From NCBI GenBank assembly GCA_019454045.1, contig SKCR01035578.1, positions 20,863-84,862 of the forward strand: a stretch of DNA of 64,000 nt, given 5' to 3'. Shown piece after piece: positions 11,454-33,771 of this stretch (positions are counted from its first letter, which is position 1; each line of letters opens with the position of its first letter). Source of the DNA: Zanthoxylum bungeanum (taxonomy: Eukaryota; Streptophyta; Magnoliopsida; Sapindales; Rutaceae). The notes beneath the pieces are model-generated. The model had not been told where the DNA came from, ran no database searches, and saw only the letters and a program-made list of their open reading frames with translations. A program made the translations under genes and the position numbers.

Positions 11454-11689
11454 TGATGAGTGGTATTTATATCACTATTTCCCACTCATTTAACCTGATA
11501 TTTTGTATAGTTTCTTGACTTTTGTCAACGTTTTGATGTGTTTTATTGTTATTTTGTAGATAAATAAAGTTTGGAAAGCATTGGAAGCAATTTGGGGCCA
11601 AAAGGGTATTTTGGTAATTTGGCCGCATCGCGACGCGCTATCCACCGGCGTCGTGATGCCTAACGTGCACCGTCATGCTCGCCGAGGGA

Positions 11690-12038: not shown

Positions 12039-12103
12039 TCATCACCAGATTTTGCCGACAGATTCCGAATGGTCAAAAACCGCGTTGATCGAAAACGCGT
12101 GCC

Positions 12104-12140
12104 AGCGTCGCGACGCTGGGATGTTTGGCGTCGCGACGCC
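12104..12140. repeat. Pair of GCGTCGCGACGC palindromes before the TATA box
   Basis: AGCGTCGCGACGCT (12104-12117) and GGCGTCGCGACGCC (12127-12140) are perfect palindromes nine bases apart. A decayed pair lies at the other side of the G-box array (about 11622-11660). Confidence 0.85.
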
Positions 12141-12156
12141 GGTTGCCGAGTTTGCC

Positions 12157-12164
12157 TATAAATT
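12157..12164 (+). promoter_or_regulatory. TATA box of LOG element 5' LTR
   Basis: TATAAATT follows the palindrome pair and lies about 120 bp after the last G-box. The same sequence occurs at 32503-32510 in the 3' LTR, and on the minus strand near 60411-60420 in the related LTR. Transcription of the element, including the LOG frame, would start roughly 30 bp downstream. Confidence 0.75.
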
Positions 12165-12443
12165 GAGCTCTTCACCACTTCATTTGGTGTGCTTTCCTTG
12201 GGAGATTTTCCCTATTTTTAGAGGATTGTATCTAGTTTTTGTAAATATAAATAATATTTAATTTATGTATTTTAATTTTCAGTAATAATAATAGTTCTTC
12301 TACTTCTCTTTTCTTTTATGTTTTATAGTTAAATTTCCGCTTGGGTAAAATGTGAAACATTTAATATAATTATCTAGGTAAATCTCACTTAACTATAATT
12401 TATAAATTATAATTTAATTGGATTAATTAATGTCAGACTTTAT

Positions 12444-12580
12444 TACCGCCTATATGGTCGGGTTAAATATAAATTACTTTACCGCATATATGGCTGGTTT
12501 TATGTGACAGATAATTACCACCTATATGGCTGGTGTAGTTGGACTAAATGGATTACCGTCTATATGGCTGGTTTTAATTG
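12444..12580 (+). repeat. Four spaced copies of ACCGCCTATATGGCTGG in R/U5
   Basis: Near-identical 17-mers start near 12444, 12480, 12515 and 12554, separated by dissimilar A/T-rich spacers of about 18 bp. They are conserved in the partner LTR (32789-32920) and, inverted, in the minus-strand LTR (about 59940-60130). Confidence 0.8.
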
Positions 12581-13425
12581 TTTAACATTATTAATTCCTG
12601 AGAAAGCAGAACATAAAATAATTTATATATTATAATAAGTGAGATTCCTAGATAAGAAATATTAAATGTGGAACCTCTAACCCCAGCATTTTATTTTTAT
12701 TCTAGGGAAGTGATGAAACACAATATTCACACTTAATAATTGATTTTCTTTTTATGAGTAATTCTTTAGTTTGTTTATTGAGTCTTAAGGTTAATGCTTC
12801 TTGTTGTCTGATCACCAATAAGATTGATATGGTAAACTTAAAATGAACTAGACATAGGGATTTTAGGTTTCAGCCTTAGATTCAATAGCCCACGATCTTC
12901 CTTGAGGATAGATAACCCTTTAATAGATTTCCTTACAGGATACACATATACCTGTCGGGCGGGGGTAGCCACAATTGGAACTTGATCTTAATGAATCCAG
13001 GTAATTTGGTTGACATAGACATATGGTTCAATTGGGTTATACTGGGTATTTGCGTCTGACCATCGACGGAGGCTTTTGCATAATTTCGTGTTCCAGGTTA
13101 GCAAACTGATTTATTACATATAATAAGAGAATCAATTCATCTTTATAATAATATTGTGTGGAGTCACGACCCTAAATCCTTGAGTCTTTTCTTTATTTTC
13201 CTTAGTATTTTCTTTTGAGTCTGTTTTATTTAATTAGCAAATCCATATTCAACCAACCAAAAGCAATCAATTCTCTTCTCCCTATAATTAGATACTTGTA
13301 AATAAATAGTATCAATAATTAGTAACAACAGTAGGAATTAAGTCCTCGTGGGATCAATATTTTTACATTACTTGAACGATACGTATGCTTGCGTTATACG
13401 TGTGTGTTTACGCCGGTCAAGTTTC

Positions 13426-13443
13426 TGGCGCCGTTGCCGGGGA
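13426..13443 (+). other. Primer-binding site of LOG element
   Basis: TGGCGCCGTTGCCGGGGA begins six bases after the LTR end. This is the classic tRNA-Asp-type primer site of plant Athila/Ty3 elements and appears unmutated. Confidence 0.85.
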
Positions 13444-13555
13444 CTTATTTTTCTTGAGTTATTAATTTTGAAGCTATCTAATTTACTTGTATCTAATTTT
13501 ATTTATTTTTATCTGTAATTTTTATTTCTTTCTTTTGTTGTCAGGTGATTGAAAA

Positions 13556-14317
13556 ATGGAACATTATAGGGAGATTGAGAGATCACGAGCTTTACTAGAA
13601 GATACACCCCAAATTTGGGAGCAACAATCCGGTTTTTTGAGGCCTATTAACCAGCCCAACAACTATCACTGGATATCAGAATCAATCAATACTACATTTG
13701 CTCATCAGAACGACATGGGGAGATGTGTAATTTGTGATGGTTACCACCTTAGCGATCAATGCATATACTTTTCAGAGTGGCAGAATTATCAGAATCATTC
13801 AAGGTACGAAGAACCATCATATTTTCCATCTTATCCACCATCTACCTACGATCTTCATCAACAATCAGAATCATCAGAAGAAGATCAGATGATTGACATG
13901 CTCAAAGATTGGTTCAAGAAACGAGATGAAGAGTTGGATACAATGCTTGAAACATATCAGAATCAACTCGAAAGTATTCAGAGACAATCAACATCTATTC
14001 AGAGGAAGACATATCAAATGAGACAATTCACAGAAAACCAGAACTACATACCTCAAGAACCAATTTCAGATGACACTGATGAAGCCTTCGAGTACCAATC
14101 AGTTCACAATGACACTTCAACAGAGGAGGAGGCTGAGCAGTATCAACAACCAGAGTTATCAGTTCAGGAGCCCAAACCAGCAAAGTCTCTATTTGACTTT
14201 TATTACTCAGATTCTGACGATGATGAAGCTGATCTATTTGTACCAACTGCACCAACAACGGAGGATCAAACTTTTAATCCTCAAAATGAAGAGATCTTGG
14301 AGCATGCTTTACCATGA
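13556..14317 (+). CDS. Gag-remnant protein with CCHC knuckle, 253 aa
   Basis: The ATG lies about 110 bp after the primer site and follows a GTGATTGAAAA leader. Residues around 58-70 form CVICDGYHLSDQC, a CX2CX3HX4C knuckle of the type found in plant Athila/Tat Gag. Before it, the large capsid (Retrotrans_gag) domain is absent. After it comes a polar, Gln/Glu-rich helix-prone segment (about 105-165, heptad-like), then a very acidic tail with a DSDDDEAD run. It is best read as an internally deleted Gag that kept the nucleic-acid-binding knuckle. It could package element RNA with a helper's capsid, which is inference. The frame continues beyond its stop as broken acidic pieces (14318-14481). Confidence 0.6.
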   Translation: MEHYREIERSRALLEDTPQIWEQQSGFLRPINQPNNYHWISESINTTFAHQNDMGRCVICDGYHLSDQCIYFSEWQNYQNHSRYEEPSYFPSYPPSTYDLHQQSESSEEDQMIDMLKDWFKKRDEELDTMLETYQNQLESIQRQSTSIQRKTYQMRQFTENQNYIPQEPISDDTDEAFEYQSVHNDTSTEEEAEQYQQPELSVQEPKPAKSLFDFYYSDSDDDEADLFVPTAPTTEDQTFNPQNEEILEHALP

Positions 14318-14890: not shown

Positions 14891-15348
14891 AATTTGTTGT
14901 AATTTCTGTTTTCATATTTTATGTATACATGTTGTAGAGTTTTTAATTTTGTGTGTTATTTTGTAGGGAAAAGCACAAACGGAGCATTTAAGGAGGAATG
15001 GTGTTTGGCAATCACAAAGATGAGAGCTAATTCATGAGTAGTGGCTGAGTAAGGAATGAATTCTTGAGACGCACCCTCATGAATTTATACTAAGCGAGTG
15101 GCGAATTGCGTACACAATTCCGTTGCCTTAATTATTGCTTTGATTTGCTTTTCTGTTGTAATTATCTTTATTTTCGTAGACAGGATCCTGACTTTTTTAC
15201 ATTTCACGATTTCTTTTGTTTTGTTTAGCTAACAAACGTCATATGGAAGATACTAGTGCTATTATTAATCACCCTTTTCAGGTACTATAAGTTTAGCCCG
15301 TCATTGCACTTTTGAAGGCATCCAGATTTAAGAAAGAAATATATAAAA
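14891..15348 (+). other. Leader region before LOG, with splice-like signals
   Basis: No long frame is seen. Pyrimidine-rich runs end in TAG at about 14967 (TTATTTTGTAG) and 15226-15228 (TTTTGTTTAG). A short upstream ATG frame starts at 15243 (ATGGAAGATAC, 15 codons). CAG/GTACTATAAG at 15279-15291 resembles a 5' splice site. These are hints of a spliced subgenomic message, not proof. Confidence 0.35.
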
Positions 15349-15831
15349 ATGGAAGCCACTTCAAGAAGACGAGTTGAAAACATCTGTGTGTTTTGCGGTA
15401 CTAGTGTTGGTACTAAGCCACAATACGTAGAGGCAGCACAAGAATTGGGTCGAGTCATAGCTGCAAGGAATATGCACTTAGTATATGGCGGAGGTAATCT
15501 TGGACTAATGGGGATCGTTTCAAAGGCTGTACAGGAGGGAGACAGTCACATTTTGGGAATCATCCCAAAACCCTTGGCAGAGGTAAATCTTATTGGATCA
15601 TCAAATGGAGATGAACTGATCGTGCCAGGTATGTCTGAACGATTGGTAGAAATGATTAACCGTGCTGATACTTTTATCGCTTTGCCAGGTGGATTGGGCA
15701 CATTGGAGGAAATTTTTATAGTGTTATCTTGGGCGAACTTGAACATACATCAGAAACCAATTGGGTTGTTTAATGTTGATGGATTTTATGATTTTCTTTG
15801 TGTGTTTTTTGATGATGCCCGAAGAAATGGG
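15349..15831 (+). pseudogene. LOG-like: LOG-family cytokinin phosphoribohydrolase, N-terminal 161 codons (split by Copia-1)
   Basis: LOG enzymes release active cytokinin bases from their riboside 5'-monophosphates. This frame starts at ATG 15349 in a strong context (AAAAATGG). It contains the family landmarks in order: ICVFCGTS (12-19), LVYGGGNLGLMG (44-55), GIIPK (70-74), MSERLVEM (95-102) and PGGLGTLEE (113-121), the phosphoribohydrolase signature. Then come KPIGLFNVDGFYD (136-148). In typical plant LOGs the 95-102 segment reads M..RKAEM; here Arg98 is kept but the following Lys is Leu. No introns are present, although plant LOG genes have several, so the copy is cDNA-like. It has no stop or frameshift up to codon 161, where Copia-1 begins after the TSD ATGGG. 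The last codons continue in frame at 30299. Confidence 0.9.
15827..15831. other. TSD ATGGG (left) of Copia-1
   Basis: ATGGG precedes the LTR start TGTTGGACAG at 15832 and recurs at 30294-30298 right after the LTR end CCCAACA. Removing the insert and one copy restores the LOG reading frame. Confidence 0.95.
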
Positions 15832-17906
15832 TGTTGGACAGTTATGACCCATAGCATCACTATTTGTACAGATCATGGTGTTGTTGTAAAAATTAACTAT
15901 GTGACAAAGGAAATTGCTCTTTTATCATTTGTAATTAGATTACCAAGATATATAAATGATAAAAGGTCCATATGATTAGTTCTGGATTGAGATGATATGA
16001 GACAATATCAATCCATAAAGGTTTAATCATTAAATATCCATAGTCATAGTATTATCGATATTGGACATCAATAATGCAGAATAGACTAGTATTACACTTG
16101 TGCGTGTTGTAGGAGCATAAAGGCATAGTTCTCATATATTTGGGTATAGGATACTCATGCAAGTGTAATAGGAGGTTGTGTTTACCGATGGTACGGAAAC
16201 AACTTCGCTCTGGATAGACCCCTCTGAATTCCATTGATAGTATGACTATGTGTCTATGGAAGTCCGAACCAGGGTAGGTGTATTTGGTCTTAACCTGAGA
16301 CTTGCACCGATAATACTTGCGACAATCAATATACTTTGGTTTTGGTCGTCCAGGGCTTTAACAGGTTATGTGTACGCCTCTTCTGGGTATATTGAGAATC
16401 ATAGTGTATTGGGTGTGATGTCGAGATGGAAGTATCACTCCAGTCATAGTGGAGATGATGATCACGTAGGATACGGAACTGGTGCTCTTATATACTGCAG
16501 TCATCGGGATAATATGACTAGGTCATGATTATCCGATTATAGAGACTAGTTACCAGAGATTCGATATGTGCTTCTTACGGGGCAGATACAATTCCAGCCA
16601 CAGGCCTTGGACGTGACATCCGATACTGGATCGAAATACGCAATACTACGTATACTACGCCTGATATAGATCAATATTCCAGTAAGAATATTTATGGAGA
16701 ATTGGGTAGGCACGATGTTTTTCTAGAAGCCAACCATGTCTTGTAAATCGGTAAAAACGTAGTACTAGGTACGTACGTGTTCGGATAGTCCGACGACCAA
16801 ATTTACTGCTAACATATCCGAGGATCTCATGGGTCGCTTCCCGAAGATTCACCGATGACATATGACTCACACTTTATTAATATGGGATTAATTATAAGAG
16901 AGAGAAAATTAATCTGGGATTAATTATGGAGATATTTTATCTCGGATAAAATATTATTAAAGAGAGAGAGAACGTTAATTTGGAATTAATCGATAAAATA
17001 ATATATTCGATATATTATATACGAATTGGATTTCGACGCAGAATTAAAATTAGATTTTAATTCGGGCGAACGAGTTAATTTAGAATTAATTCGTTAGCGA
17101 CGTGAATAGTAATTTTACTAGGCAAAATTATTTAATTGAATTTGATTTAATTACGTCGCAACGGAAAATTCGTTAATTTGGAATTAGCTAACCCGACCCC
17201 GGGAGTGTTTGCGGGCCCACTCGCATTTCGAATTCAAGTGTGGCCCACAAGTCACATCTAGCGTCAAATCACTAGTCAATCAAGTGATGAAAGTCAAATC
17301 ACTTTGAGTGAAGTGATGCTTGTCATCATTGATTGATGTGAATAGTGACATGAGTGGTTGATGGCATTTTTGGCCATTTTTGGCTCCAAATTATTTTGAC
17401 TTTTTGAAAGCCTTTTACAAGATTTTGGAGATCAATCTTTTGGTATTAGTTTTAGAAACAAAACCAAAACCATCACACTTACCATTCTCTCTCTCCACTC
17501 ACGGTTTGGAACCATTTCCCTCCTCTCCCTCTCTCGGCTTTGAAGCCAAAATTTCCTCTCATTTTCTTGTCAAATGCCGAGAACAAGATGAAGTGAAATG
17601 GAAGATTTGTTGCAAATCTTGCCAATGCTAGCATATGAAGAGTCATCCTAAGGTGATAGGGAACTAACTTATGAGTATGGAATCACCACACAAAGCTTGG
17701 AGATTGGAGATTCATCCATGGAGTTGATCGAATATGGAGGAGCACAAAAAGTGGCCAAATCCGAGAGGTCAAAGAGCTTGGAAATTTGTTGTTCCTCGCA
17801 TCGCATAACCGATCAATGTAAGTATGATTCCACCATTCTTCATTGTTGTATTCACTCATGTTTCATTGCTTGAAATTCGATCTTGGGACTAACAAGAAAC
17901 CCAATA
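15832..17906 (+). repeat. Copia-1 5' LTR
   Basis: It begins TGTTGGACAG and ends CCCAATA, where the 3' LTR has CCCAACA. The same LTR architecture as in Copia-2 is seen, with the GGTAGTATGNCTATGTGTCTATGG, GTACGTACGTGTTCGGAT, GCTAGCACAT and GTAAGTATGATTC landmarks, but sequence identity with Copia-2 is only moderate. Confidence 0.9.
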
Positions 17907-20900
17907 ATGGTATCTTGAGCCATTTTGAGCATGAAATGAATTTAGGGTAAAATTTGGGTAAAATCAATTTGAGCATGACTTGATAAAATTGATTGATTGA
18001 GTATGCTTGAATGATGATGTATTGAAGTTGTATATGATCAATTTCATGAAATATTGATTGGATCAATTTTTCCCCAATATATGAGGCTTGGCCGAATGTA
18101 TGCAATGCTCTAATGTCATGGTATTTTTTGTTTTTTTAAATCATTGGATGAGTTGGAAAACATTGGGTAATGTTGATTGTGGATTTAATTGGATTGAAAC
18201 CGAATCGAACAATAAAAACCCCAAAATGCCGAGACTTGATTAACATGGAAAATGATTAATTTTTTGATTCAAATGTGTTGGACATGTTTTGATGATAATG
18301 AGCATAATTAATTGAGTGAATTAGTATTTTTGAAATGTTAATTTGGTTAATTAATTATGGCATACACTTTAGATTAATTGAATTGGGAAATTTGGAAATT
18401 TAATTAATTGGCCAAATTTTGGAATTGGGCTTGTAAAGTTGTAATTGGGCTTAATGGGCTTGGTTGGGCCAAGTTTGGTTTAGACTAATTGGTTGGATCC
18501 AATTGGGCCCAAACCATATCCATAAAGTCCAATTATGACTTAATGGACCTTTAATTTTAATTGGGCCTAAATTGGTTTCTTGGCAAATAAGGGTGATTCC
18601 TTAAATGGGCTTTGGTATTTGGGTTTGACCCATATTGACCAAAAGTCCATGCCTTAAGAAATTAATTAAAAGCCCATTGGTCTTTAATTAAATTGACATT
18701 GGATGTTAATTGGCTTTGAGACCCGAAAATATTAGATTTAGAATCTAAGTCGCTAAAGGCACATTAAAAGTGTAATATTTAATTTGGAATTAAATATAAA
18801 ATTAGTATTAAATACAAATTAAATTGGATTTAATGTTGTAGTTTAATATAATTCAAGAATTCGTACTTTGAGTAATTATTCGCAATACGAGTTTGACTCG
18901 CGCAAAATCAAATCATTGTTTGAACATTGGATGGTCATTAATTTTCAGATTAATTAATTGTATTAGATTGATGATAACATGCTTGTGTGATACATGATTG
19001 CGATGTATGAATAATGTATATCGGATGGATATTAAATGGGTGAGGGCAATTTTGGAAATTGTTGTAATAAATTTAGAATTTATTAATTAGACCTGCGTGT
19101 CTAGCCTATTACCTTTTGACTCTGTGTATTTCTCTTCTCACCTATTCCCCTCAATGTAAATGAGTTTCTTTAGAAGTGTTATGTAATTGGGTAGAAGTAA
19201 TACTTGTGCTAGCGGGAGAGAGGAAATGGAGAGATTTGTTCTAGGAACAATGTGTTAAGTATCCATCCGCATATCATTATTATATTTATTTATACGCGCC
19301 TTATTATGTTTCATTGCTTGAAATTCGATCTTGGGACTAATAAGAAACCCAACAATTGTATCTTGAGCCATTTTGAGCATGAAATGAATTAGGGTAAAAT
19401 TTGGGTAAAATCAATTTGAGCATGATTTGATAAAATTGATTGATTGAGTATGCTTGAATGATGATGTATTGAAGTTGTATATGATCAATTCATGAAATAT
19501 TGATTGGATCAATTTTTCCCCAATATGTGAGGCTTGGCCGAATGTATGCAATGCCCTAATGTCATGGTATTTTTTGTTTTTTAAATCATTGGATGAGTTG
19601 GAAAACATTGGGTAATGTTGATTGTGGATTTAATTGGATTGAAACCGAATCGAACAATAAAAACCCCAAAATGCCGAGACTTGATAAGCATGGAAAATGA
19701 TTAATTTTTTGATTCAAATGTGTTGGACATGTTTTGATGATAATGAGCATAATTAATTGAGTGAATTAGTATTTTTGAAATGTTAATTTGGTTAATTAAT
19801 TATGGCATACACTTTAGATTAATTGAATTGGGAAATTTGGAAATTTAATTAATTGGGCCAAATTTTGGAATTGGGCTTGTAAAGTTGTAATTGGGCTTAA
19901 TGGGCTTGGTTGGGCCAAGTTTGGTTTAGACTAATTGGTTGGATCCAATTGGGCCCAAAACCATATCCATAAAGTCCAATTATGACTTAATGGACCTTTA
20001 ATTTTAATTGGGCCTAAATTGGTTTCTTGGCAAATAAGGGTAATTCCTTAAATGGGCTTTGGTATTTGGGTTTGACCCATATTGACCAAAAGTCCATGCC
20101 TTAAGAAATTAATTAAAATCCCATTGGTCTTTAATTAAATTGACATTGGATGTTAATTGGGCTTTGAGACCCGAAAATATTAGATTTAAAATCTAAGTCG
20201 CTAAAGGCACATTAAAAGTGTAATATTTAATTTGGAATTAAATATAAAATTAGTATTAAATACAAATTAAATTGGATTTAATGTTGTAGTTTAATATAAT
20301 TCAAGAATTCGTACTTTGAGTACTTATTCGCAATACGAGTTTGACTCGCGCAAAATCAAATCATTGTTTGAACATTGGATGGTCATTAATTTTCAGATTA
20401 ATTAATTGTATTAGATTGATTGATAACATGCTTGTGTGAATACATGATTGCGATGTATGAATAATGTATATCGGATGGATATTAAATGGGTGAGGGCAAT
20501 TTTGGAAATTGTTGTAATAAATTTAGAATTTAATTTATTAATTGGACCTGCGTGTCTAGCCTATTACCTTTTGACTCTGTGTATTTCTCTTCTCACCTAT
20601 TCCCCTCAATGTAAATGAGGTTTCTTTAGAAGTGTTATGTAATTGGGTAGAAGTAATACTTGTGCTAGCGGGAGAGAGGAAATTGAGAGATTTGTTCTAG
20701 GAACAATGTGTTAAGTATCCATCCGCATATCATTATTATATTTATTTATACGCGCCTTATTATGTTTCATTGCTTGAAATTCGATCTTGGGACTAATAAG
20801 AAACCCAACAATTGTATCTTGAGCCATTTTGAGCATGAAATGAATTTAGGGTAAAATTTGGGTAAAATCAATTTGAGCATGATTTGATAAAATTGATTGA

Positions 20901-23661
20901 TTGAGTATGCTTGAATGATGATGTATTGAAGTTGTATATGATCAATTTCATGAAATATTGATTGGATCAATTTTTCCCCAATATGTGAGGCTTGGCCGAA
21001 TGTATGCAATGCCCTAATGTCATGGTATTTTTTGTTTTTTAAATCATTGGATGAGTTGGAAAACATTGGGTAATGTTGATTGTGGATTTAATTGGATTGA
21101 AACCGAATCGAACAATAAAAACCCCAAAATGCCGAGACTTGATAAGCATGGAAAATGATTAATTTTTTGATTCAAATGTGTTGGACATGTTTTGATGATA
21201 ATGAGCATAATTAATTGAGTGAATTAGTATTTTTGAAATGTTAATTTGGTTAATTAATTATGGCATACACTTTAGATTAATTGAATTGGGAATTTGGAAA
21301 TTTAATTAATTGGGCCAAATTTTGGAATTGGGCTTGTAAAGTTGTAATTGGGCTTAATGGGCTTGTTGGGCCAAGTTTGGTTTAGACTAATTGGTTGGAT
21401 CCAATTGGGCCCAAAACCATATCCATAAAGTCCAATTATGACTTAATGAACCTTTAATTTTAATTGGGCCTAAATTGGTTCTTGGCAATAAGGGTAATTC
21501 CTTAAATGGGCTTTGGTATTTGGGTTTGACCCATATTGACCAAAAGTCCATGCCTTAAGAAATTAATTAAAAGCCCATTGGTCTTTAATTAAATTGACAT
21601 TGGATGTTAATTGGGCTTTGAGACCCGAAAATATTAGATTTAAAATCTAAGTCGCTAAAGGCACATTAAAAGTGTAATATTTAATTTGGAATTAAATATA
21701 AAATTAGTATTAAATACAAATTAAATTGGATTTAATGTTGTAGTTTAATATAATTCAAGAATTCGTACTTGAGTACTTATTCGCAATACGAGTTTGACTC
21801 GCGCAAAATCAAATCATTGTTTGAACATTGGATGGTCATTAATTTTCAGATTAATTAATTGTATTAGATTGATTGATAACATGCTTGTGTGAATACATGA
21901 TTGCGATGTATGAATAATGTATATCGGATGGATATTAAATGGGTTAGGGCAATTTTGGAAATTGTTGTAATAAATTTAGAATTTATTAATTGGACCTGCG
22001 TGTCTAGCCTATTACCTTTTGACTCTGTGTATTTCTCTTCTCACCTATTCCCCTCAATGTAAATGAGGTTTCTTTAGAAGTGTTATGTAATTGGGTAGAA
22101 GTAATACTTGTGCTAGCGGGAGAGAGGAAATGGAGAGATTTGTTCTAGGAACAATGTGTTAAGTATCCATCCGCATATCATTATTATATTTATTTATACG
22201 CGCCTTATTATGTTTCATTGCTTGAAATTCGATCTTGGGACTAACAAGAAACCCAACAATTGTATCTTGAGCCATTTTGAGCATGAAATGAATTTAGGGA
22301 AAATTTGGGTAAAATCAATTTGAGCATGATTTCATAAAATTGATTGATTGAGTATGCTTGAATGATGATGTATTGAAGTTGTATATGATCAATTTCATGA
22401 AATATTGATTGGATCAATTTTTCCCCAATATGTGAGGCTGGGCCGAATGTATGCAATGCCCTAATGTCATGGTATTTTTTGTTTTTTAAATCATTGGATG
22501 AGTTGGAAAACATTGGGTAATGTTGATGTGGATTTAATTGGATTGAAACCGAATCGAACAATAAAAACCCCAAAATGCCGAGACTTGATAAGCATGGAAA
22601 ATGATTAATTTTTTGATTCAAATGTGTTGGACATGTTTTGATGATAATGAGCATAATTAATTGAGTGAATTAGTATTTTTGAAATGTTAATTTGGTTAAT
22701 TAATTATGGCATACACTTTAGATTAATTGAATTGGGAAATTTGGTAATTTAATTAATTGGGCCAAATTTTAGAATTGGGCTTGTAAAGTTGTAATTGGGC
22801 TTAATGGGCTTTGTTGGGCCAAGTTTGGTTTAGACTAATTGGTTGGATCCAATTGGGCCCAAAACCATATCCATAAAGTCCAATTATGACTTAATGGACC
22901 TTTAATTTTAATTGGGCATAAATTGGTTTCTTGGCAAATAAGGGTGATTCCTTAAATGGGCTTTGGTATTTGGGTTTGACCCATATTGACCAAAATTCCA
23001 TGCCTTAAGAAATTAATTAAAAGCCCATTGGTCTTTAATTAAATTGACATTGGATGTTAATTGGGCTTTGAGACCCGAAAATATTAGATTTAGAATCTAA
23101 GTCGCTAAAGGCACATTAAAAGTGTACTATTTAATTTGGAATTAAAAATAAAATTAGTATTAAATACAAATTAAATTGGATTTAATGTTGTAGTATAATA
23201 TAATTCAAGAATTCGTACTTTGAGTACTTATTCGCAATACGAGTTTGACTGGCGCAAAATCAAATCGTTGTTTGAACAGTGGATGGTCATTAATTTTCAG
23301 ATTAATTAATTGTATTAGATTGATTGATAACATGCTTGTGTGAATACATGATTGCGATGTATGAATAATGTATATCGGATGGATATTAGATGGGTGAGGG
23401 CAATTTTGGAAATTGTTGTATAAATTTAGAATTTATTAATTGGACCTGCGTGTCCAGCCTATTACCTTTTGACTCTGTGTATTTCTCTTCTCACATATTC
23501 CCCTCAATGTAAATGAGGTTTCTTTAGAAGTGTTATGTAATTGGTAGAAGTAATACTTGTGCTAGCGGGAGAGAGGAAATGGAGAGATTTGTTCTAGGAA
23601 CAATGTGTTAAGTATCCATCCGCATATCATTATTTATCTATTTATACGCGCCTTATTATGT
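17861..23661 (+). repeat. Four tandem ~1.45-kb copies of the Copia-1 LTR-end/PBS/leader unit
   Basis: Units start with TTTCATTGCTTGAAATTCGA at 17861, 19309, 20765 and 22213 (lengths 1448, 1456, 1448, ~1448). Each holds the last ~46 bp of the LTR, the primer-site region and the leader up to TACGCGCCTTATTATG. Copies are highly similar, differing by scattered small changes. Junctions lie at an ATGT shared by the LTR (CTCATGTTTC) and the leader (TTATGTGTTT). Copia-2 has a single such unit (about 41680-43145). No gene is seen in any copy. Confidence 0.95.
17908..17921 (+). other. Copia-1 primer-binding site
   Basis: TGGTATCTTGAGCC follows the 5' LTR and resembles the TGGTATCAGAGC site for initiator tRNA-Met. 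In the three later tandem copies the corresponding bases read TTGTATCTTGAGCC, losing the second base of TGG. Confidence 0.7.
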
Positions 23662-24659
23662 GTTTAGAATGCATGTTTAAGGGTGTATGATGATAAGACC
23701 TTAACAAAGATTATTAATTGGTTGTCAATTCGCGCGAAAAACCCTCAAAACATATTAAGCGTTTTCCTTCCATTGAGTGATTCTTACTCAAGATCAAAGA
23801 CTGGCACTGGTTTGTTGGCCAAAGTCAAGACCCTTGTCCCTCGCGAATGTGTTGAATCATGAAGGCTTTGTTTCATATCAGTGTCTTGTCCAATTTGTGA
23901 TTTGTTGGCCAAATTCAAGATCACTTCTTGTCCATCGACATCGATTACGAAGCTTTCCATGGTCAATGGGTTCCGCTTAACTGGGATCACTAAGTTGTTG
24001 TGCCAAAGCCAAGGCTTAGTTGATTCAGAGGAAAAATGTTAGGGAATATATTGGATATATTGGATATATAAGATATTATGTTTCGGACTTGGATGTCCAC
24101 CTACTGGATCTAGGAATTGGATAGGATCCAATTGATCTTAGAGATCTACCTAGTTAATTATCATATAATTTGTTGGCCAGAGTCAAGATTGTGTGTTATT
24201 TAACGGGATCCTAGCCCACTAGGAAACAAGGCTTCCCGAGTACTCAACAGAGGTTAGAGGCTCACCGAAAAATAGTGGGAGGCAAGTATTAAATTTGCAA
24301 TATTCATTAGTTACTTGCCATACGCGCTCATTTCAAATTTTTCGTCAAATAATTAATATATTAGTTGGACTAATATTTAATCGTTGTTTTGATATGACAG
24401 TTGGACTGTATTCAAACTATTTCATTTATAGTTGATTATATAATTGGATTATAGTAATCAATATATTTGAATTAACTAATTTCAATTAATAGTTGATTTT
24501 ATATTGGATTATAGTAATCAATATATTTGAATTAACCTATTAAATATAGTTGATCATATAGTTGGACTATAGTAATCATTATGATGAATAGTACCTAAAA
24601 TCGTTGATTGATAGTTTGACTATTGGAATCAAGATAATTGAAAGATTAGTGTTTAAAAC
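23662..24659 (+). other. Copia-1 distal leader with short repeats
   Basis: Non-coding. It contains four dispersed copies of a CCAAAGTCAAGA-like motif (near 23819, 23909, 24002, 24178), and a degenerate ~60-bp tandem repeat at about 24420-24600 built on TTGGATTATAGTAATCA. Both have counterparts in Copia-2 (43301-43670 and 43850-43935). Confidence 0.6.
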
Positions 24660-25260
24660 ATAATCCTGGGTGAAAATGTATTTAAACGGCTTTAATTTTC
24701 AAATTGGGAATAAAACTTCAGGATAGTCCTGAAAACCGAGAAGTTACTTTATTTGATATAGTGACATCTCGAGCCTAAGCCCGGAGTTGAGCAAATAGTA
24801 GAGCATGATCCTTGGAAGATTCATGTGATGATAACTTTAGTGCTTAATCCATTAAGCTTGCCAAATAGATTCCTTAATTTCTTAAGTCAGAACTAAGGAT
24901 TAGATCCTTATAGTATGATATTGAAATTGAAGGATCTTCATAGATCTATCTTTAGATCTTAGAAGTACTAAATTGCAATATTAAACTCTTGGAGAGTTAA
25001 TGGCTATTCTCAAGGAGACAAAGCCAAAGTTTGCAATAAGGCAAAAAGCGCAAGGCGCATCTTATTTCGACATTCTAGAAGGCCAAGGCTTGGCCAAAGG
25101 CTTATGGGGTGTGGAAAAAGGGCAAAGGCAAAATTATCACAGTCTTCTAGGAAGACAAATGACATATCCCAAGATTTCTGACTAAACTGTGGCAAACAGG
25201 GTCACTGGAAGCGTGACTGCCGTATGGACAAGGCATACATGAAGGAATTGAAGACGGTAT
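24660..25260 (+). pseudogene. Copia-1 gag relic
   Basis: This aligns by eye with the Copia-2 gag: the CATAATCCTGGGTGAAAATG start matches CATAATCATGGGCGATAATG of Copia-2. The middle is deleted and there are several stops. Near 25185-25232 the zinc knuckle is still readable as NCGKQGHWKRDC, preceded by a stop. It cannot make Gag. Confidence 0.65.
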
Positions 25261-25299
25261 TAAGGCTCCGACTTCAAATATGTTTGTCATAAACATGTT

Positions 25300-28190
25300 C
25301 ACTGCTAGTATTAAAATTGGATTTTAGATTCTAGATGTTGGTACATAAAAATATGTACTGGTGTGCAGAATCTGCTGGTTAGCAGGATACTGACTTCAGT
25401 TGAGATTTATCTACGAATCGGAAACGGGACGACAATCGCTGTTTTAACCGTAGAAACCTAAGTTTATGAACAACCCTTTGGGTGTGTACTTAAATTATCA
25501 AACTTTTAGAATGTAACTAGTTTGACTAGAAATATTATCTCTATATCAGGTTTAACCCATTACGGGTATACCTTTATATTCTAGAACACTAAAGTGTTTT
25601 ATTTTATAAAGATGATATTGAGATAAACACATTAGATGTGAATAACAGTATTTATATTTTGAATATAAATAAATCTCAAACATATAACATGACAAACAAA
25701 TAGCTTAAACTGAATTAATCAGTTGAGACTTATTTGTGGCATTGTTGTCTGGGACACAATTAATAAGACTCGTATATCCACACTTTTGAAGAGTGGATAT
25801 TTTGAGGGATTGATTCTATTCAAATAATGTCTACGAATCTAGTTTATTAGGCAAAGTGCCCTAAAACATCTTTTACTTGGTAAAAGTGCAAGTGCCACCG
25901 ATCTGTTAGCCCTTGTTCATAGTGACGTAAGTGGGCCCATATCTAGCTAGGCTAGAGGTGGATATGAATGTTTCGTGACCTTTACGAATGTGGCATCGCA
26001 TTATAGTTATGTGTTTCTTTTGAAACACGGATAAAAAACTTTTGATTAATTCAAAGAGTTTCGACACGAAGTAGACAAACAGATCGGCTAAAGTATTAAA
26101 AGCGTCACAGTTAGACCATGATGGAAAATACTTAAACAATAAGTTTCTCAAATACTTGAAAGAGTATAGTATTCTTTCAATGAGGACTCCTCCCGGAACA
26201 CGTCAATTTGACAGTGTGTCCGAGCGGAGAAACCGAATTTTGTTCGACATGATAAGGTTAATCATGAGTCGCTCTGAGCTACCATTTCCTTCAAGGGATA
26301 CACATTAATCAGTGCAAAACTTATTTTGAATAAGGTTCCATAAAAATCTGTTTGACAGACTTCATATTAGATATGAACATGAAAGAAACCGGGTTTTCTC
26401 ATTCCTGTAGATTTGAGTATGCTGGGCATATGTTCGGATGATACCAAACTAGAACCCAAATTGGATAAGTTCCTAAGTTGTGGGTTATCCTAGGGAAACC
26501 AAGTATAGTACTTATACAACTCACTAAAGAACAATGTAATTATTGCTCGCCATGCGGTTTTCTTGAGAGGAATATTTATATGCAGTGGTAAGTGTGAGGT
26601 GAGGAAAGTAAACTCGATGAAAACGGAGTAATACTATTCCAGGCACCGATTCCTTAATGGAACACAAATAGTTCATCAAGGATGAAACTATACCAATAAT
26701 CTTCGAATACACAAGAACCACGTAAGTCGGAGAGAGTCAGAAAACAAACTGGGGTATGGGTTTCTGATCTCACCTCATGAATATGTCAATCTTATTGAGA
26801 ATACGAACTGACTACGTATGAGGAAGTGATACAAGGTATCGACTCCCTATTATGGCAAAGTGCCATGATGTCCGAAATGGATTCCATGTGAACCAACCAA
26901 GTTTAGACACTGGTTGATGTACCGGAAGGCATTGTGCCTATTGGTACTATATAAGTCTTCAAGGAAGACATACATGGAAGGAAACATACCAACGTACAAA
27001 GCTAGGCTTGTACCGAAAAGGTATCGTTATCAACATTGTGTCGATTACGACGAAACCTTTTACCCATTGCCATTGTTAAATCCATTTGGATAATGCTTGC
27101 TGCTGCTGCATGGCAACTAAACGCCAAAATTGTTTTCCTTAACGAAAACCTTTTGGAGGATGTTTACAACATCCTGACGGTTTTGTCGTACCAAAACGAG
27201 CAAACAAGGTTTGCAGTTATTCGATCCATTGATGGATTGAAGCAAGCATTGAGTTCTTAGAACTATGTCGCTTTGATGTAATCATAATGGTATATGATTT
27301 CATTCAAAACAAAAATGATTCTTGTGTATATAAGGAGGTTAGTGGGAGCGCACTGACAATAAATATCCTATATAATGATAATATGTCATTTCTTGGAAAT
27401 GACATTCCTATATAATGATGACATATCATTTCTTGGAAATGATATTCCCATAATTCAATCGGTGAAGTTTGTCTTTCATGAAAAAGTCTCCGTAGAATTC
27501 TTGGGAGAGACAACCTTTATTCTAGGAATAAAGATCTACTGGGATAGATCTAAAAGTTGTTGGTACTCTCCGAGAACTCGTACATTGAAATAAATGTACG
27601 CGACCTGGTGTCTCATATGCTTTGAGCATATGGAGTCATAATCAGGCCAATCCAAGTGATAGTCACTAGATTGATATTAAGAACATCTTTTAGTATCTTA
27701 GAGAACTAAGGATGCTTTTTACACTATGGAGAAGGAGAACTTGAAGTGACTGGGTTCACTACTGCAAGTTTCCAAACCGATAAGAACGACTAAAAGTCGT
27801 AACAAAGGTACTATAAAGTTTGAATAACAGAACAGTGAGCTGGAAATTTTCCATGCAAGATACTGTTACCGAATAAACAACAAAAGTGGGATATTGCTGC
27901 AACCGAGAGAGCAATAGAAGCCTTCTGGATTGATAATAATCCTAATCAGATTAGGAGTAGTTCTGTTAGCAGCTGAGCTAGGCTACAGCACATGCTAAAG
28001 AATTAATGGTCTCAACAACGATCTAGATAAATACTTCGAATATTCATCTGATTCGTTCGGATCATACATCGTGGCGATGTGATGATCGAATAAATCGCAT
28101 CAGATAGTAATCATGCAAATCCGCTGACGAAAGCATTTCCTCAGCAGAAGTTTGAGCGAACCGTACATAGTTCGGGTGTAGGACACTTGA
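25300..28190 (+). pseudogene. Copia-1 pol relic (protease, integrase, RT, RNase H)
   Basis: The order of domains matches Copia-2 throughout. The protease region around 25315 reads W-I-L-D-S-R-C, with the catalytic DSG changed to DSR. A pre-integrase segment follows near 25735 (YLWHCCLGH). The integrase start LVHSDVSGP is near 25912, and decayed integrase runs to about 26450. RT spans about 26800-27560, with a readable piece at 27036-27260. RNase H relics run about 27740-28190. Numerous frameshifts, stops and small deletions make it non-functional. Confidence 0.75.
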
Positions 28191-28207
28191 GTGATTGGCT
28201 ATAGGCC

Positions 28208-28218
28208 AAGTGGGAGAT
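28208..28218 (+). other. Copia-1 polypurine tract
   Basis: AAGTGGGAGAT abuts the 3' LTR and is identical in Copia-2 (47888-47898). Confidence 0.85.
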
Positions 28219-30293
28219 TGTTGGACAGTTATGACCCATAGCATCACTATTTGTACAGATCATGGTGTTGTTGTATCAATTAACTATGTGACAAAGAAAA
28301 TTGCTCTTTTATCATTTGTAATTAGATTACCAAGATATATAAATGATAAAAGGTCCATATGATTAGTTTCGGATTGAGATGATATGAGACAGTACCAATC
28401 CATAAAGGTTTTATCATTAAATATCCATAGTCGTAGTATTATCAAGATTGGACATCGATAATGCGGAATAGACTAGTATTACACTTGTGCGCGTTGTGGG
28501 AGCATAAATGCATAATTCTCATATATTTGGGTATATGATACTCATGCAAGTGTAATAGGAGGTTGTGTTTACCGATGGTATGGAAACAGCTTCGCTCTGG
28601 ATAGACCCATCGAAATTCCATTGGTAGTATGACTATGTGTCTATGGAAGTCCGAATCAGGGTAGGTGTATTTGGTCTTAACCTGAGACTTGCACCGCTAA
28701 TACTTGCGACAATCAATATACTTTGGTTTTGGTCATCCAGAGCTTTAACAGGTTCTGTGTACGCCTCTTCTTGGTATATTGAGAATCGTAGTGTATTGGG
28801 TGTGATGTCGAGATGGAAGTATCACTCCAGTCATAGTGGAGATGATGATCACGTAGGATACGAAACTGGTGCTCTTATATACTACAGTCATCGGGATAAT
28901 ATTACTAGGTCATGATTATCCGATTATAGAGACTAGTTACCAGAGATCTGATATGTGCTTCGTACGGGGCAGACACAATTCCAGCCCCAGGCCTTGCACG
29001 TGACATCCGATACTGGATCAAAATACGCAATACTACGTATACTACGCCTGATATAGATCACATATTCCAGTAAGAATATTTCTGGAGAATTGGGTAGGCA
29101 CGGTGCTTTGCTAGAAGCCAACCATGTCTTGTAAATCGATAAAAATGTAGTACTAGGTACGTACGTGTTCGGATAGTCCGACGACCGGATTTACTGCCAA
29201 CATATCCGGGGATCTCATGGGTCGCTTCCCGAAGATTCACCGATGACGTATGACTCGCACTTTATTAATCTGGGATTAATTATAAGAGAGAGAAAATTAA
29301 TCTGGGATTAATTACAGATATATTTTATCTGGGATAAAATATTAATTAAAGAGAGAGAGAACGATTAATTTGGAATTAATCGATAAAATAATATATTCTA
29401 TATATTATAAGAAATTGGATTTCGACGCTGAATTTAAATTAGATTTTAATTCGGGCGAACGAGTTAATTTAGAATAATTCGTTAGCGACGTGAATAGTAA
29501 TTTTGCAAGGCAAAATTATTTAATTGAATTGATTTAATTACGTCGCAACGGAAAATTCGTTAATTCGGAATTAGCGAACCCGAGCCCGAGAGTGTTTGCG
29601 GGACCACTCGCATTTCGAATTCAAGTGTGGCCCACAAGTCACATCTAGCATCAAATCACTAGTCAGTCAAGTGATGAAAGTCACATCACTTTGAATGATG
29701 TGATGCTTGTCATCATTGATTGATGTGAATAGTGACATGAGTGGTTGATGGCATTTTTGGCCATTTTTGGCTCCAAATTCTTTTGACTTTTTGAAAGCCT
29801 TTTACAAGATTTTGGAGATCAATCTTTTGGTATTAGTTTTAGAAACAAAACCAAAACCATCACCCTTGCCCTTCTCTCTCTCCACTCAAGGTTTGGAACC
29901 ATTTCCCTTCTCTCCCTCTCTCGGCTTTGAAGGCAAAATTTCCTCTTCTTTTCTTGTCAAATGCCGAGATCAATATGAAGTGAAATGGAATATTTGTTGC
30001 AAATCTTGCCAATGCTAGCACATGAAGAGTCATCCTAAGGTGATAGGGAACTAACTTATGAGCATGGAATCACCACACAAAGCTTGGAGCTTGGAGATTC
30101 ATCCATGGAGTTGACCGAATATGGAGGAGCACAAAAAGTGGCCAAAGCCGAGAGGTCAAGGAGCTTGGAGTTTTGTTGTTCCTCGTATTGCATAACCGAT
30201 CAATGTAAGTATGATTTCGCCATTCTTCATTGTTGTATTCACACATGTTTCATTGCTTGAAATTCGATCTTGGGACTAACTACAAACCCAACA
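28219..30293 (+). repeat. Copia-1 3' LTR
   Basis: It runs from TGTTGGACAG to CCCAACA and is the partner of 15832-17906. A ~92-codon open frame (28637-28915) is present in the equivalent place in all four copia LTRs of this window but is probably not a gene. Confidence 0.9.
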
Positions 30294-30298
30294 ATGGG

Positions 30299-30469
30299 TT
30301 CGTGTCAAAACCTTTAAAAGAACTAATATTCACTGCCAGAACTGCTCCGGATCTAATAGACAAACTCTTAGCCTATGAACCACAAGTTGACCCTATCATT
30401 TCAAAGATAAATTGGTCCGAGGACGATCGTGGTAAGAGGCGTCGGATTAATCTGGATCTTAACCTTTAA
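30299..30469 (+). pseudogene. LOG-like: LOG-family enzyme, C-terminal 56 codons with KRRR and LDLNL tail
   Basis: It continues the frame broken at 15831. Codons 162-217 of the pre-insertion frame start with GFVS-type sequence (Gly161 lies before the insert), which matches the GFIS/GFV of plant LOGs. An APDLIDKLLAYEP stretch corresponds to the AKEL..KLE.Y of the family. The end departs from usual LOGs: after SKINW, an acidic ED-D run leads to KRRR (207-210) and the final five residues LDLNL (213-217), then TAA. KRRR could act as a nuclear signal, and LDLNL fits the LxLxL form of the EAR repression motif. Both are inferences. The piece alone has an ATG only in copia LTR sequence (30230), so it is not a separate gene. 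Confidence 0.85.
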
Positions 30470-30997
30470 TTTCCTGTAGAATTTCAGCTAACCAGGTATT
30501 ATCTTATAAACTCTTCTTCTACTGTTTAAGACATTGGGGACAATGTCTCATTTAGGTTTGGGGGATGGAATTAGTTGATCAATACCTTCTTTTTAGTTTG
30601 TGTGTTATTTTTATTTTTAGTCCAAAATTTTTCGAAAAATACAAAAAAATTGATTTCTTTTTCAAAAATTACAAAATGATTTTGCGTTTTTGTGTTTTTA
30701 TTTTGACTAAAAAGGTGAAATTCGTAAGAGATAGTTGAGTAAGGAGTTTCCACTCCTGAGACGTATCTCAAACCTATTTCGGAACAAGTTAGTTTTTGTT
30801 TATTTCATTTTAAATTATTTAATTTGTAAATTCTCCATAAAATTGACTAAAATGGATCTTTATATGCTCAGTTGACATGTATTATCAACATGTATAGTAA
30901 CATACAGACATGAACTGTAATTGAAAAGTTTGGAATATTCAGTGCTCTAATTTAATTGGAGGAAGCATCTCAAAAAGCAATGGAGTAAAAAAAAAAA

Positions 30998-31240
30998 TCT
31001 GAGATCCGAGTTATTAAGTCTGTAAGGGTGTTTTAAACCTAGTGCCCTAAAGCCAACTGGTTTGGGAGTCACTGGCCCAAAGCTCGCTACATGGATCAAG
31101 GATGTTGCAAGAATATATATATATCTGAAGTCTGAGTAATTAAGTCCGTAGGGGTGTCTTAATACATAGTGCCCTAAAGCCAACTGGTTTGGGAGCCACC
31201 GACCCAAAGCTCGCTACATAGACGGAAGATATTGTATATA
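30998..31240 (+). repeat. Two-unit tandem repeat, ~127-bp period
   Basis: AGTGCCCTAAAGCCAACTGG occurs at 31041 and 31168, and is followed in both by TTTGGGAG.CAC and CCCAAAGCTCGCTACAT. Units differ at about 15 positions. Confidence 0.85.
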
Positions 31241-31781
31241 AATAAAAGATAAAATCAAAAATCAAAGAAAAAAATCAGAAAAATCCGAAAAATTATTCCA
31301 TTGCTGCAAAAAGGTGTGAATTCTGATAAAACTTTAGGACAAAAATATTACTCTCTTATCAACTGCATTTATGACTGTTGTGGGAAAAAATGAGTTGTTT
31401 AATATTATGTTGGCTGTGTATATGGAGAATGGTAAATATAATCGGAGAATTTACTTATTCAGTAATTTAGAAAGAAACAAAACAGCTAGTAACTTGGAGT
31501 AGAAGTTTCACCTGATTAGTTACTAACTTTTTTATTCTCTTTTCGCTTGTCTTTTTGCTTTTGTGTGCATTAGTTTGACTACCTTTTTACTTTTGTAAAA
31601 TATTTGTGGGTATCATTGCTGTAAACCCTCACGATACTACAACTCGTCCACTATGGACACCTATGGGTTTAAGAGCTTGTTGCATACGCTAAATGCAACC
31701 GTGATCCCTACAAAAGTGGCATAGTTTAAATTTTTTTATGATATTTTATTTTGTGTTTTGCTCGAGGACTAGCAAAATGTT

Positions 31782-31794
31782 AGGTTTGGGGGTG
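31782..31794 (+). other. LOG element polypurine tract
   Basis: AGGTTTGGGGGTG lies immediately before the 3' LTR start TGATGAG at 31795. Confidence 0.85.
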
Positions 31795-33766
31795 TGATGA
31801 GTGGTATTTATATCACTATTTCCCACTCATTTAACCTAATATTTTGTATAGTTTCTTGAGTTTTGTGAACGTTTTGATGTGTTTTATTGTTATTTTGTAG
31901 ATAAATAAAGTTTGGAAAGCATTGGAAGCAATTTGGGGCCAAAACAGTGAAAAATGACGAAAAAGGGTATTTTGGTAATTTGGCCGCGTCACGACGCCTA
32001 ACGTGCAGCGGTCATGCTAACGTGCGCCGACGGACACATGTCAGAATCTGAGAAATTGGCCTTGCTAACGTGCGCCAGATCTTTCAAACGTGCGCCGATC
32101 TTGCTAACGTGCGCCATGCCACTTGTCATCATCACAGAAGATCAGCTAAAATGCGCCATTGCCACATGTCATAATCCTATTGGACCAAACATAACGCGTG
32201 CCACGTGTCGCCTTATCATTGGACCGAATCACCAGTGAATCACATGCTGCCACGTGTCAAGCTCTCATTGGACCGATCTTTACAGCGTGCAACGTGTCAG
32301 ATTCTCATTGGACCGAAACATCCACCAATCACCGTGTGCCACATGTCGCCTTCCCATTGCACCACATTCAGCGCGTGCCACATGTCATCACCGGATTGTG
32401 CCGACGGATTCAGCGTGGTCAAAAACTGCTTTGACCGAAAACGCGTGCCAACGTCGCGACGCTGTGATGTTTGGCTTCGCCACGCCGGTTGCCGAGTTTG
32501 CCTATAAATTGAGGTCTTCACCACTTCATTTGGTGTGCTTTCCTTGGGAGCTTTTCCCTGTTTTTAGAGGATTGCATCTAGTTTTTGTAAATATAAATAA
32601 TATTTAGTTTATATATTTTAATTTTCAGTAATAATAATAGTTCTTCTTCTTCTCTTTTCTTTTATATTTTATAGTTAAATTTCCGCTGGGGTAAAAGGTG
32701 AAACATTTAATATAATTTTCTAGGTAAATCTCACTTAACTATAATTTATAAATTATAATTTAACCGAATTAATTAATGTCAGACTTTATTATCGCCTATA
32801 TGGTCGGGTTAAATATAAATTACTTTACCGCCTATATGGCTGGTCTTTATGTGACAAATAATTACCGCCTATATGGCTGGTGTAGTTGGACTAAATGGAT
32901 TACTGCCTATATGGTTGGTTTTAATTGTTTTTATTAATTACTGAGAAAGCAGAACATAAAATAATTTATATATTATAATAAGTGAGATTCCTAGATAAGA
33001 AATATTAAATGTGGATCCTCTAACCCCCAGCATTTTATTTTTATTCTAGGGAAGTGATGAAACACAATATTCACACTTAATAATTGATTTTCTTTTTATT
33101 GGTAATTCTTTAGTTTGTTTATTGAGTCTTAAGGTTAATTCTTCTTGTTGTCTGATCACCAATAAGATTGATATGGTAAACTTAAAATGAACTAGACATA
33201 GGGATTTTAGGTTTCAGCCTTAGATTCAATAGTCCACGATCTTCCTTGAGGATAGATAACCCTTTAATAGATTTCCTTACAGGATAGACATATACCTGTC
33301 GGGCGGGGGTAGCCACAATTGGAACTTGATCTTAATGAATCCAGGTATTTGGTTGACATAGACATATGGTTCAATTGGGTTATACTGGGTATTTGCGTCT
33401 GACCATCAATAAAGGCTTTTGCATAATTTCGTGTTCCAGGTTAGCAAACTGATTTATTACACATAAATAAGAGAATCAATTCATCTTTATAATAATATTG
33501 TGTGGAGTCACGACCCTAGATCCTTGAGTCTTTTCTTTTATTTTCCTTAGTATTTTCTTTTGAGTCTATTTTTATTTTAATTAGCAAATCCACATTCAAC
33601 CAACCAAAAGCAATCAATTCTCTTCTCCCTATAATTAGATACTTGTAAATAAATAGTATCAATAATTAGTAACAACAGTAGGAATTAAGTCCTCGTGGGA
33701 TCGATATTTTTATACTACTTGAACGATACGTACGCTTGCGTTATACGTGTGTGTTTACGCCGGTCA
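31795..33766 (+). repeat. 3' LTR of LOG element
   Basis: This is the partner of 11454-13419, with the TATA box at 32503-32510 and the four 17-mers at 32789-32920. Several G-box cores have changed from CACGTG to CACATG, consistent with CpG deamination. The TSD CTATC follows at 33767-33771. Confidence 0.9.
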
Positions 33767-33771
33767 CTATC

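What the first reader, a model, noticed from the sequence alone, without database searches (positions are those of the whole stretch)
15349..30469. An LTR retrotransposon carrying an intron-less LOG cytokinin-activating enzyme gene
Seen: a frame with ICVFCG, YGGG.LGLMG and PGGLGTLEE motifs runs from 15349 to 15831 and resumes in phase at 30299-30469 once Copia-1 and one ATGGG are removed, giving 217 codons without a stop. It lies inside an element with its own LTRs, PBS, PPT and perfect CTATC TSD. Known: LOG proteins convert cytokinin nucleotides to free bases, and plant LOG genes contain introns. Inferred: the gene was taken up as cDNA and transposes as cargo under an LTR promoter. I know of no described LTR retrotransposon family with a LOG cargo.
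Basis: partly seen in the sequence, partly recalled or inferred. Interest (0 to 1): 0.92.

Follow-up and report, generated by a model that had tools for sequence, protein, structure and literature searches.

The report
Retrotransposon carrying a cytokinin-activating enzyme gene
A plant jumping gene in this genome carries an intron-less, selectively conserved relative of the enzyme that switches on the growth hormone cytokinin; elements of this kind were reported before in citrus and poplar, but the measured selection, the special protein tail and a neighbouring virus-like gene add new detail.

Summary
Confirmed: the element at 11454-33766 (LTRs 93% identical, TSD CTATC) holds an intron-less LOG frame split by a Copia-type insertion. 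Pfam, fold and motif support a type-I LOG. It is a mobile cargo: 40 scored places (window included) match LOG DNA at 95-100%, 150 of 150 scored places match a LOG3 stretch; five of 20 fetched copies show other TSDs; 7 of 20 keep 217 open codons; pN/pS is 0.31 against a neutral mean of 0.77. Relatives carry pol, a carlavirus-like nucleic-acid-binding ORF, then LOG. Two host LOG genes are broken by introns and roughly half identical, so capture is old. Element-type LOGs end in a basic LxLxL tail (90 of 120 relatives, 0 of 120 LOG1/LOG3-type LOGs). Against an 'always kept' story: of 15 window-type copies chosen by another ORF, only 4 have LOG where expected. The window copy is dead. The effect (local cytokinin activation, perhaps nuclear action through the tail) is inferred, untested.

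The parts
11449..11453 (.). target-site duplication CTATC, left
   Evidence: same 5 bases at 33767-33771
11454..13419 (+). 5' LTR (TGATGAG...GCCGGTCA); TATA-like CTATAAA at 12156; five ACGTGTC boxes between 11691 and 12040
13426..13445 (+). primer-binding-site-like TGGCGCCGTTGCCGGGGACT (tRNA-Asp type from recall, not tested)
13556..14317 (+). 253-codon ORF A of unknown function, CX2CX3HX4C motif; no Pfam family over its cut-off; pN/pS 0.61 over 13 rows, not clearly below non-coding
15240..15348 (+). leader of LOG with TTTTCAGG at 15275-15282, splice-acceptor-like (23 of 30 rows have TYTTCAGG within 140 nt)
15349..15831 (+). LOG frame, codons 1-161
15832..30293 (+). Copia-type insertion with further repeats inside, TSD ATGGG; splits LOG
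30299..30469 (+). LOG frame, codons 162-217 and stop; tail KRRRINLDLNL
   Evidence: letters
30470..31794 (+). 3' internal region shared with pol-bearing relatives; internal PPT-like TTAGGTTTGGGGGA at 30552-30565 and PPT before the 3' LTR
31795..33766 (+). 3' LTR
33767..33771 (.). target-site duplication CTATC, right

Best explanation
The window holds a dead, non-autonomous member of a Ty3/gypsy (Athila-like) LTR-retrotransposon lineage that long ago took up a spliced host LOG transcript and has since kept it, in many but not all members, as an accessory gene. Shown: LOG frame inside LTRs; many copies, with different TSDs where these could be read; relatives with RT, RNase H and integrase followed by a carlavirus-like nucleic-acid-binding ORF and then LOG; purifying selection on LOG; a lineage-specific C-terminal tail. 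Inferred: the capture as cDNA; that the protein is an active cytokinin-nucleotide phosphoribohydrolase, made from an LTR-driven (perhaps spliced) RNA, which raises free cytokinin in the expressing cell and so favours dividing, meristem-like cells from which new insertions are inherited; that pol-bearing relatives supplied the proteins that moved the window's element, which has no pol and whose LOG is interrupted.
For: LOG family, fold and catalytic motif; copies; pol-NABP-LOG order; selection: pN/pS 0.31 (codon bootstrap 0.20-0.45) in 7 open copies against a neutral simulation mean of 0.77, lowest of 200 runs 0.43, falling to 0.17 at dS above 0.6; ORF A 0.61 against LOG 0.37 in the same 13 rows; two host genes broken by introns and without such a tail; tail 90 of 120 relatives against 0 of 120 LOG1/LOG3-type LOGs.
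Against: No expression or enzyme data. 13 of 20 fetched copies have a broken LOG, and one of the 7 open ones starts with ACG. Of 15 copies chosen by ORF A and not by LOG, 11 lack LOG where it is expected, so window-type elements can do without it. Low pN/pS in window-type copies could come from recombination with pol-bearing ones. One pseudo-frame of the non-coding 3' region has pN/pS 0.58, so the contrast with non-coding DNA is not extreme. The Athila assignment rests on recalled features; no RT tree was made.
Confidence: 0.65

Rival explanations
1. Passenger: LOG was captured by chance, has no function for the element, and looks conserved because the copies are young.
For: Most fetched copies are broken (13 of 20); 11 of 15 ORF A copies do without LOG at its usual place.
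Against: Synonymous divergence is about 0.10 among the 21 rows and 1.3-1.4 between L029 and L019 or L017, while pN/pS is 0.31-0.36 in the pooled sets and 0.15-0.16 for L029, below neutral simulation; tail and catalytic residues are conserved across relatives 51-89% identical.
Confidence: 0.12
2. Changed role: the LOG fold is kept but the main job is nuclear. The basic patch and LxLxL tail (EAR-like, from recall) bring a co-repressor or take the enzyme into the nucleus, so that the element alters host transcription or silencing.
For: LxLxL at the C terminus in 90 of 120 relatives, 0 of 120 LOG1/LOG3-type LOGs, 66 of 6000 shuffled tails; the tail is of low confidence in the model, as a flexible docking tail would be.
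Against: Catalytic motif residues stay invariant or nearly so, which argues that the enzyme still works; EAR function was not tested; four relatives on the canonical side of the tree lack the full tail.
Confidence: 0.2
3. Host gene with LTR elements inserted around it: the LOG is a normal host locus.
For: LOG genes exist in this genome (24 exon matches).
Against: The two host genes read are broken by introns and roughly half identical to the element LOG; LOG lies at the same place between LTRs in copies with different TSDs.
Confidence: 0.02
4. Modular exchange: LOG is selected only in pol-bearing elements; non-autonomous ones gain and lose it by template switching, and their LOG is a hitch-hiker. 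(Compatible with the best explanation; it narrows where selection acts.)
For: LOG pS (0.096) is half that of ORF A (0.21) in the same 13 rows; the eight other copies have somewhat lower pN/pS (0.27, bootstrap 0.17-0.45); LOG is missing in 11 of 15 ORF A copies.
Against: pN/pS within the 13 window-type rows is still 0.37 (bootstrap 0.27-0.53), and the two ranges overlap.
Confidence: 0.4

Closest known systems
LOG (YgdH-domain)-bearing LTR elements of Citrus sinensis, C. clementina and Populus trichocarpa (PMC9289625, section 12 read; it cites Steinbauerova et al. 2011 Genetica 139:1543, which is not held; abstract recalled: two Athila-like elements with LOGL4-like extra ORFs)
   Same: LTR retrotransposon with a LOG-family extra ORF
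   Different: Here: another genome, at least 150 places, pol-less derivatives with LOG, selection measured, C-terminal tail and upstream NABP ORF described. The section read gives no such detail on the LOG case.
Canonical plant LOG cytokinin riboside 5'-monophosphate phosphoribohydrolases (LOG3 2a33, LOG8 1ydh)
   Same: Fold (Foldseek E 2e-21, 50% identity to LOG3), PGGxGTxEE motif, length
   Different: Intron-less, separated by a branch of 0.74 changes per column, basic LxLxL tail; 0 of 120 LOG1/LOG3-type proteins have it (LOG5, LOG7, LOG8 types not sampled for tails)
Phalaenopsis Ty3/gypsy elements with an m6A demethylase domain (PMC9289625)
   Same: Enzyme domain acquired by a plant gypsy element
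   Different: Different enzyme; found there in two Phalaenopsis species only
Carlavirus cysteine-rich NABP (PMC8839810, passages)
   Same: The ORF upstream of LOG in pol-bearing relatives matches PF05515 and PF01623
   Different: Encoded by a retroelement; Cys spacing CX2CX4CX3C in L019, not the CX2CX12CX4C given for that virus

Membership tests
LOG phosphoribohydrolase (type I) | Lysine_decarbox/LOG domain over curated cut-off | tested here: met
   window piece 104.4 bits, L019 copy 125.9 bits, cut-off 27
LOG phosphoribohydrolase (type I) | PGGxGTxxE motif and the upstream Arg (catalytic roles recalled) | tested here: met
   P113, G114, G115, G117, E120, E121 invariant and R98 nearly invariant in 28 aligned sequences
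LOG phosphoribohydrolase (type I) | Rossmann-type LOG fold | tested here: met
   AlphaFold2 of L019 LOG, pLDDT 86; best PDB match LOG3 2a33, TM 0.95 by target, 0.76 by query
LOG phosphoribohydrolase (type I) | release of free cytokinin from its nucleotide | not testable with these tools
   needs an enzyme assay
Ty3/gypsy LTR retrotransposon | pol order RT - RNase H - integrase | tested here: met
   in relative L019, pieces searched apart; the window copy has no pol
Ty3/gypsy LTR retrotransposon | LTRs, PBS, PPT, 5-bp TSD | tested here: met
   window and 5 of 20 copies for TSD; the tRNA behind the PBS is recalled
Athila lineage | RT/INT phylogeny within Athila | not tested
   no reference set at hand; assignment recalled from PBS, PPT and gag wording
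Athila lineage | Athila ORF-1 domain PF03078 (in 16% of Athila elements by PMC6317226, passage) | tested here: not met
   no hit in the pieces scanned; a minority feature, so not decisive
LARD / TRIM | non-autonomous and without coding capacity (definition recalled) | tested here: not met
   window element carries ORF A and LOG

The most novel reading that the evidence does not exclude
An old, eudicot-wide retroelement lineage runs a virus-like two-gene accessory module behind pol: a carlavirus-type zinc-finger nucleic-acid-binding protein (a class of silencing suppressors and symptom factors) and a cytokinin-activating LOG with a nuclear, EAR-like tail. Together they would push host cells towards division and weaken silencing, so that the element spreads through meristems; parts of the module are lost or swapped in non-autonomous derivatives.
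Probability: 0.3. Interest if true: 0.88.

Novelty: new variant of a known kind. Interest (0 to 1): 0.6.

Why it matters
If the element LOG is active, a transposon family manipulates a plant growth hormone from within the genome, with at least 150 such places in this one genome (34 of the 150 in open frames of 217 codons or more). It would make testable what extra ORFs in plant Ty3/gypsy elements are for. It also warns annotators: plant gene models such as Populus 'LOGL10' with the basic LxLxL tail, and similar ones in Reevesia and Paulownia, may be transposon genes rather than hormone genes of the host.

Tried and rejected
Rejected: host LOG locus with LTRs inserted around it. Rejected after a control: 'non-autonomous copies always keep LOG'. 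All 20 first copies had been found with a LOG query; 15 of the 39 non-window places found with ORF A (the best-scoring ones, except C33166, whose expected spot lies off its contig, and C3591, left out as a near-twin of C3590) gave LOG in 4 of 15. In L054 and L056 other sequence fills the spot and the usual 3' region follows; L053 shows 3' region and LTR there; the other 8 hold other sequence. LOG further away was not looked for.

Led nowhere: scan of viral contigs (4 pattern stretches, none a relative); AlphaFold2 of the NABP ORF (pLDDT 58, not used for a fold search); matK for naming the plant: fragments, and no protein search left to name it, so the species stays unknown. Ten paper searches: the only held paper in which I saw LOG in LTR elements is PMC9289625; I saw none on a carlavirus-type NABP in a plant retrotransposon, but opened only passages of PMC7264820, PMC6317226 and PMC8839810 besides; other papers were seen as listings only, and the underscore terms matched nothing.

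Full report
WHAT IS THERE. At 1.3e-8 substitutions per site and year (recalled grass rate) this is roughly 2.5-3 million years; the rate for this plant is unknown. The LOG frame is 161 codons at 15349-15831 and 56 codons plus stop at 30299-30469, with ATGGG at both edges of a Copia-type insertion 15832-30293 (PBS-like AATGGTATCTTGAGCC after its 5' LTR, type recalled). The natural open copy L019 matches both pieces (94% and 95%). Pfam: PF03641 6.6e-30, PF18306 4.8e-17. AlphaFold2 of the L019 LOG (pLDDT 86) matches Arabidopsis LOG3 2a33 best (E 2e-21, 50% identity, TM 0.95 by target, 0.76 by query), then LOG8 and bacterial type-I LOGs.

IT IS A MOBILE FAMILY. The 483-base LOG piece gave 40 matches of 40 scored, the window included (7,964 first-look candidates), 95-100% identical. 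A 45-residue LOG3 stretch gave 150 of 150 scored at E 1.7e-10 or better (38,733 candidates), 58-67% identical, 34 of them in open frames of 217 or more; the 12 of these 150 that I fetched are all element-type LOG, whole or in pieces. Candidate numbers are not copy numbers. Of 20 copies fetched (19 at 9.9 kb, one at 8.6 kb) all carry LOG, as they must, having been found with it; 7 of 20 have no stop or frameshift in 217 codons (L013 begins with ACG). Five of 20 show a 5-bp TSD at the LTR ends by my scan, all different: GTATT, TATTA, CATGT, ATAGG, GAGAG; in the other 15 an end lies outside the stretch or none was recognised. In the 12 copies with at least 900 aligned LTR bases the pair is 93.8-97.5% identical.

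TYPES OF ELEMENT. Three of 20 (L016, L019, L027) match all four quarters of the L019 pol frame; L019 itself has RVT_1, RT_RNaseH and rve in one open frame. L025 has a gag end, RNase H and integrase but lacks most of RT. Three (L010, L021, L028) have gag and only the end of pol. Twelve are of the window's type, with ORF A. One (L022) is a composite. So pol-bearing elements with LOG exist and could supply proteins to the window type; that they do is inferred.

A VIRUS-LIKE ORF BESIDE LOG. Between pol and LOG in 7 of 20 copies (L018 and L023 give weak traces only, E 0.006-0.008) and upstream of LOG in 9 of 12 further loci lies an ORF of about 155-180 codons that matches Viral_NABP PF05515 (1.1e-6, 29.2 bits, cut-off 23) and Carla_C4 PF01623 (2.4e-6, 27.8 bits, cut-off 20.9) in L019; 22 of 25 members of an alignment of L019 and 24 relatives match each family. 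A database search gave 322 relatives among 371 candidates; the 120 listed carry PF01623 in the precomputed column (counted by eye); named ones are from Xanthoceras, Populus, Acer, Orobanche and Rhamnella. Its pN/pS is 0.71 for pairs at dS under 0.1 and 0.31-0.40 beyond (no simulation was run for it). In carlaviruses such proteins bind nucleic acid, act as silencing suppressors and symptom determinants, and in one virus are tied to uppL and cell proliferation (PMC8839810, passages). Which way the gene went, virus to retroelement or back, is open.

SELECTION. Pooled pN/pS over the 7 open LOG copies is 0.31 (codon bootstrap 0.20-0.45), over all 21 rows 0.33 (0.22-0.50), over the 13 broken ones 0.36. 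Neutral simulation with the observed transition bias gives a mean of 0.77, lower 2.5% 0.49, lowest of 200 runs 0.43; the non-coding 3' region of 18 rows (three copies dropped for truncated matches) read as pseudo-codons gives 0.91, 0.58 and 0.69. With the 7 open copies and 12 more loci, pairs at dS below 0.2 give about 0.40, at 0.2-0.6 about 0.33, above 0.6 0.17 (pairs with 90 or fewer codons dropped), the pattern expected when replicating lineages are constrained and inserted copies decay. In the 13 window-type rows ORF A has 0.61 and LOG 0.37; the eight other rows have LOG 0.27. LOG pS is 0.096 and ORF A pS 0.21 in the same rows, so LOG has a younger ancestry than its neighbour: recombination among subfamilies is likely.

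AGAINST A SIMPLE STORY. I took 15 copies found with ORF A (not with LOG) and read 901 bases where LOG should lie: LOG in 4 of 15 (L051, L052, L059 without a stop, L057 with one), none in 11. Two of the 11 (L054, L056) have the usual 3' region after other, repeat-like sequence, one (L053) has 3' region and LTR, the other eight hold other sequence. So LOG is a common module of the lineage, not a constant part of the window's subfamily.

ORIGIN. Twenty-four matches to a canonical LOG exon pattern (20 exact) lie in the genome. Two of these places were read (L043 LOG3-like, L044 LOG1-like): tblastn pieces imply five interruptions in L043 and about six in L044 where the element LOG runs on; two clean exon matches of L043 to the element LOG are 54% and 56% identical, other matches are lower or run into introns. 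L043 ends ...SKLSWEMEQLDYSQEYDIN. Among the 120 listed closest relatives of the element LOG (some incomplete), 90 have LxLxL within two residues of the C terminus and 101 fit a looser basic-plus-hydrophobic pattern; shuffled tails fit in 66 and 125 of 6,000. Of 120 listed relatives of LOG3, from Arabidopsis to Cryptomeria, none fits either; these are LOG1/LOG3-type, other LOG types were not sampled. In a tree of 126 rows (relatives outside 205-260 residues dropped) canonical LOGs are one side of a branch (100/100, length 0.74), and the element copies fall among tailed relatives (midpoint root; P0033, P0036, P0037 and P0080, without the full tail, attach on the canonical side). Named tailed relatives come from Populus, Reevesia, Diplodiscus and Paulownia. 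Whether those genes lie in LTR elements was not tested here; for Populus and Citrus LOG-bearing elements are in print. The simplest reading is one old capture of a spliced LOG message, then long life as an element gene.

MECHANISM. Shown: enzyme fold and catalytic motif conserved, selection, LTR setting. Inferred: expression from the LTR (TATA-like box at 12156; five ACGTGTC boxes in 620 bp of the 5' LTR, Markov expectation 0.08, most in 500 runs 2; three in the whole 3' LTR), perhaps through a spliced RNA using the TTTTCAGG before LOG (23 of 30), and local cytokinin activation that favours dividing cells. The tail suggests nuclear targeting and a co-repressor contact (EAR motif, recalled).

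NOVELTY. Not met in the ten paper searches: measured selection on such a LOG, the tail as a lineage mark, the NABP neighbour, presence and absence in non-autonomous relatives.

Noticed in passing
L019:3895-4359 and relatives; window 61246-61698 (-): ORF between pol and LOG with carlavirus-type NABP/zinc-finger domain (PF05515, PF01623) and 322 database relatives; a copy with two stop codons lies in the window on the minus strand.
   Followed up: partly
window 58412-63596 (-): Further element(s) of the same lineage on the minus strand: pol and NABP at 63596-61187, an LTR start at 61186 with no PPT before it (looks like a nested insertion), gag at 58945-58412; no LOG found there.
   Followed up: partly
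window 11691-12040 and 32203-32300: Repeated ACGTGTC (G-box/ABRE-like, recalled) and ATTGGACC boxes in the LTR, far above Markov expectation in the 5' LTR.
   Followed up: partly
L054, L056 (also L045, L046): Window-type relatives with repeat-like sequence where LOG lies in others; in L054 and L056 the same 3' region follows: an apparent cargo swap or loss.
   Followed up: partly
window 17858-23544: Four tandem units of about 1.45 kb inside the Copia-type insertion.
   Followed up: no
G000 contig C40003 (L041, L042) and 26 other contigs: Fragments of plastid matK, many with stops, probably nuclear insertions.
   Followed up: no
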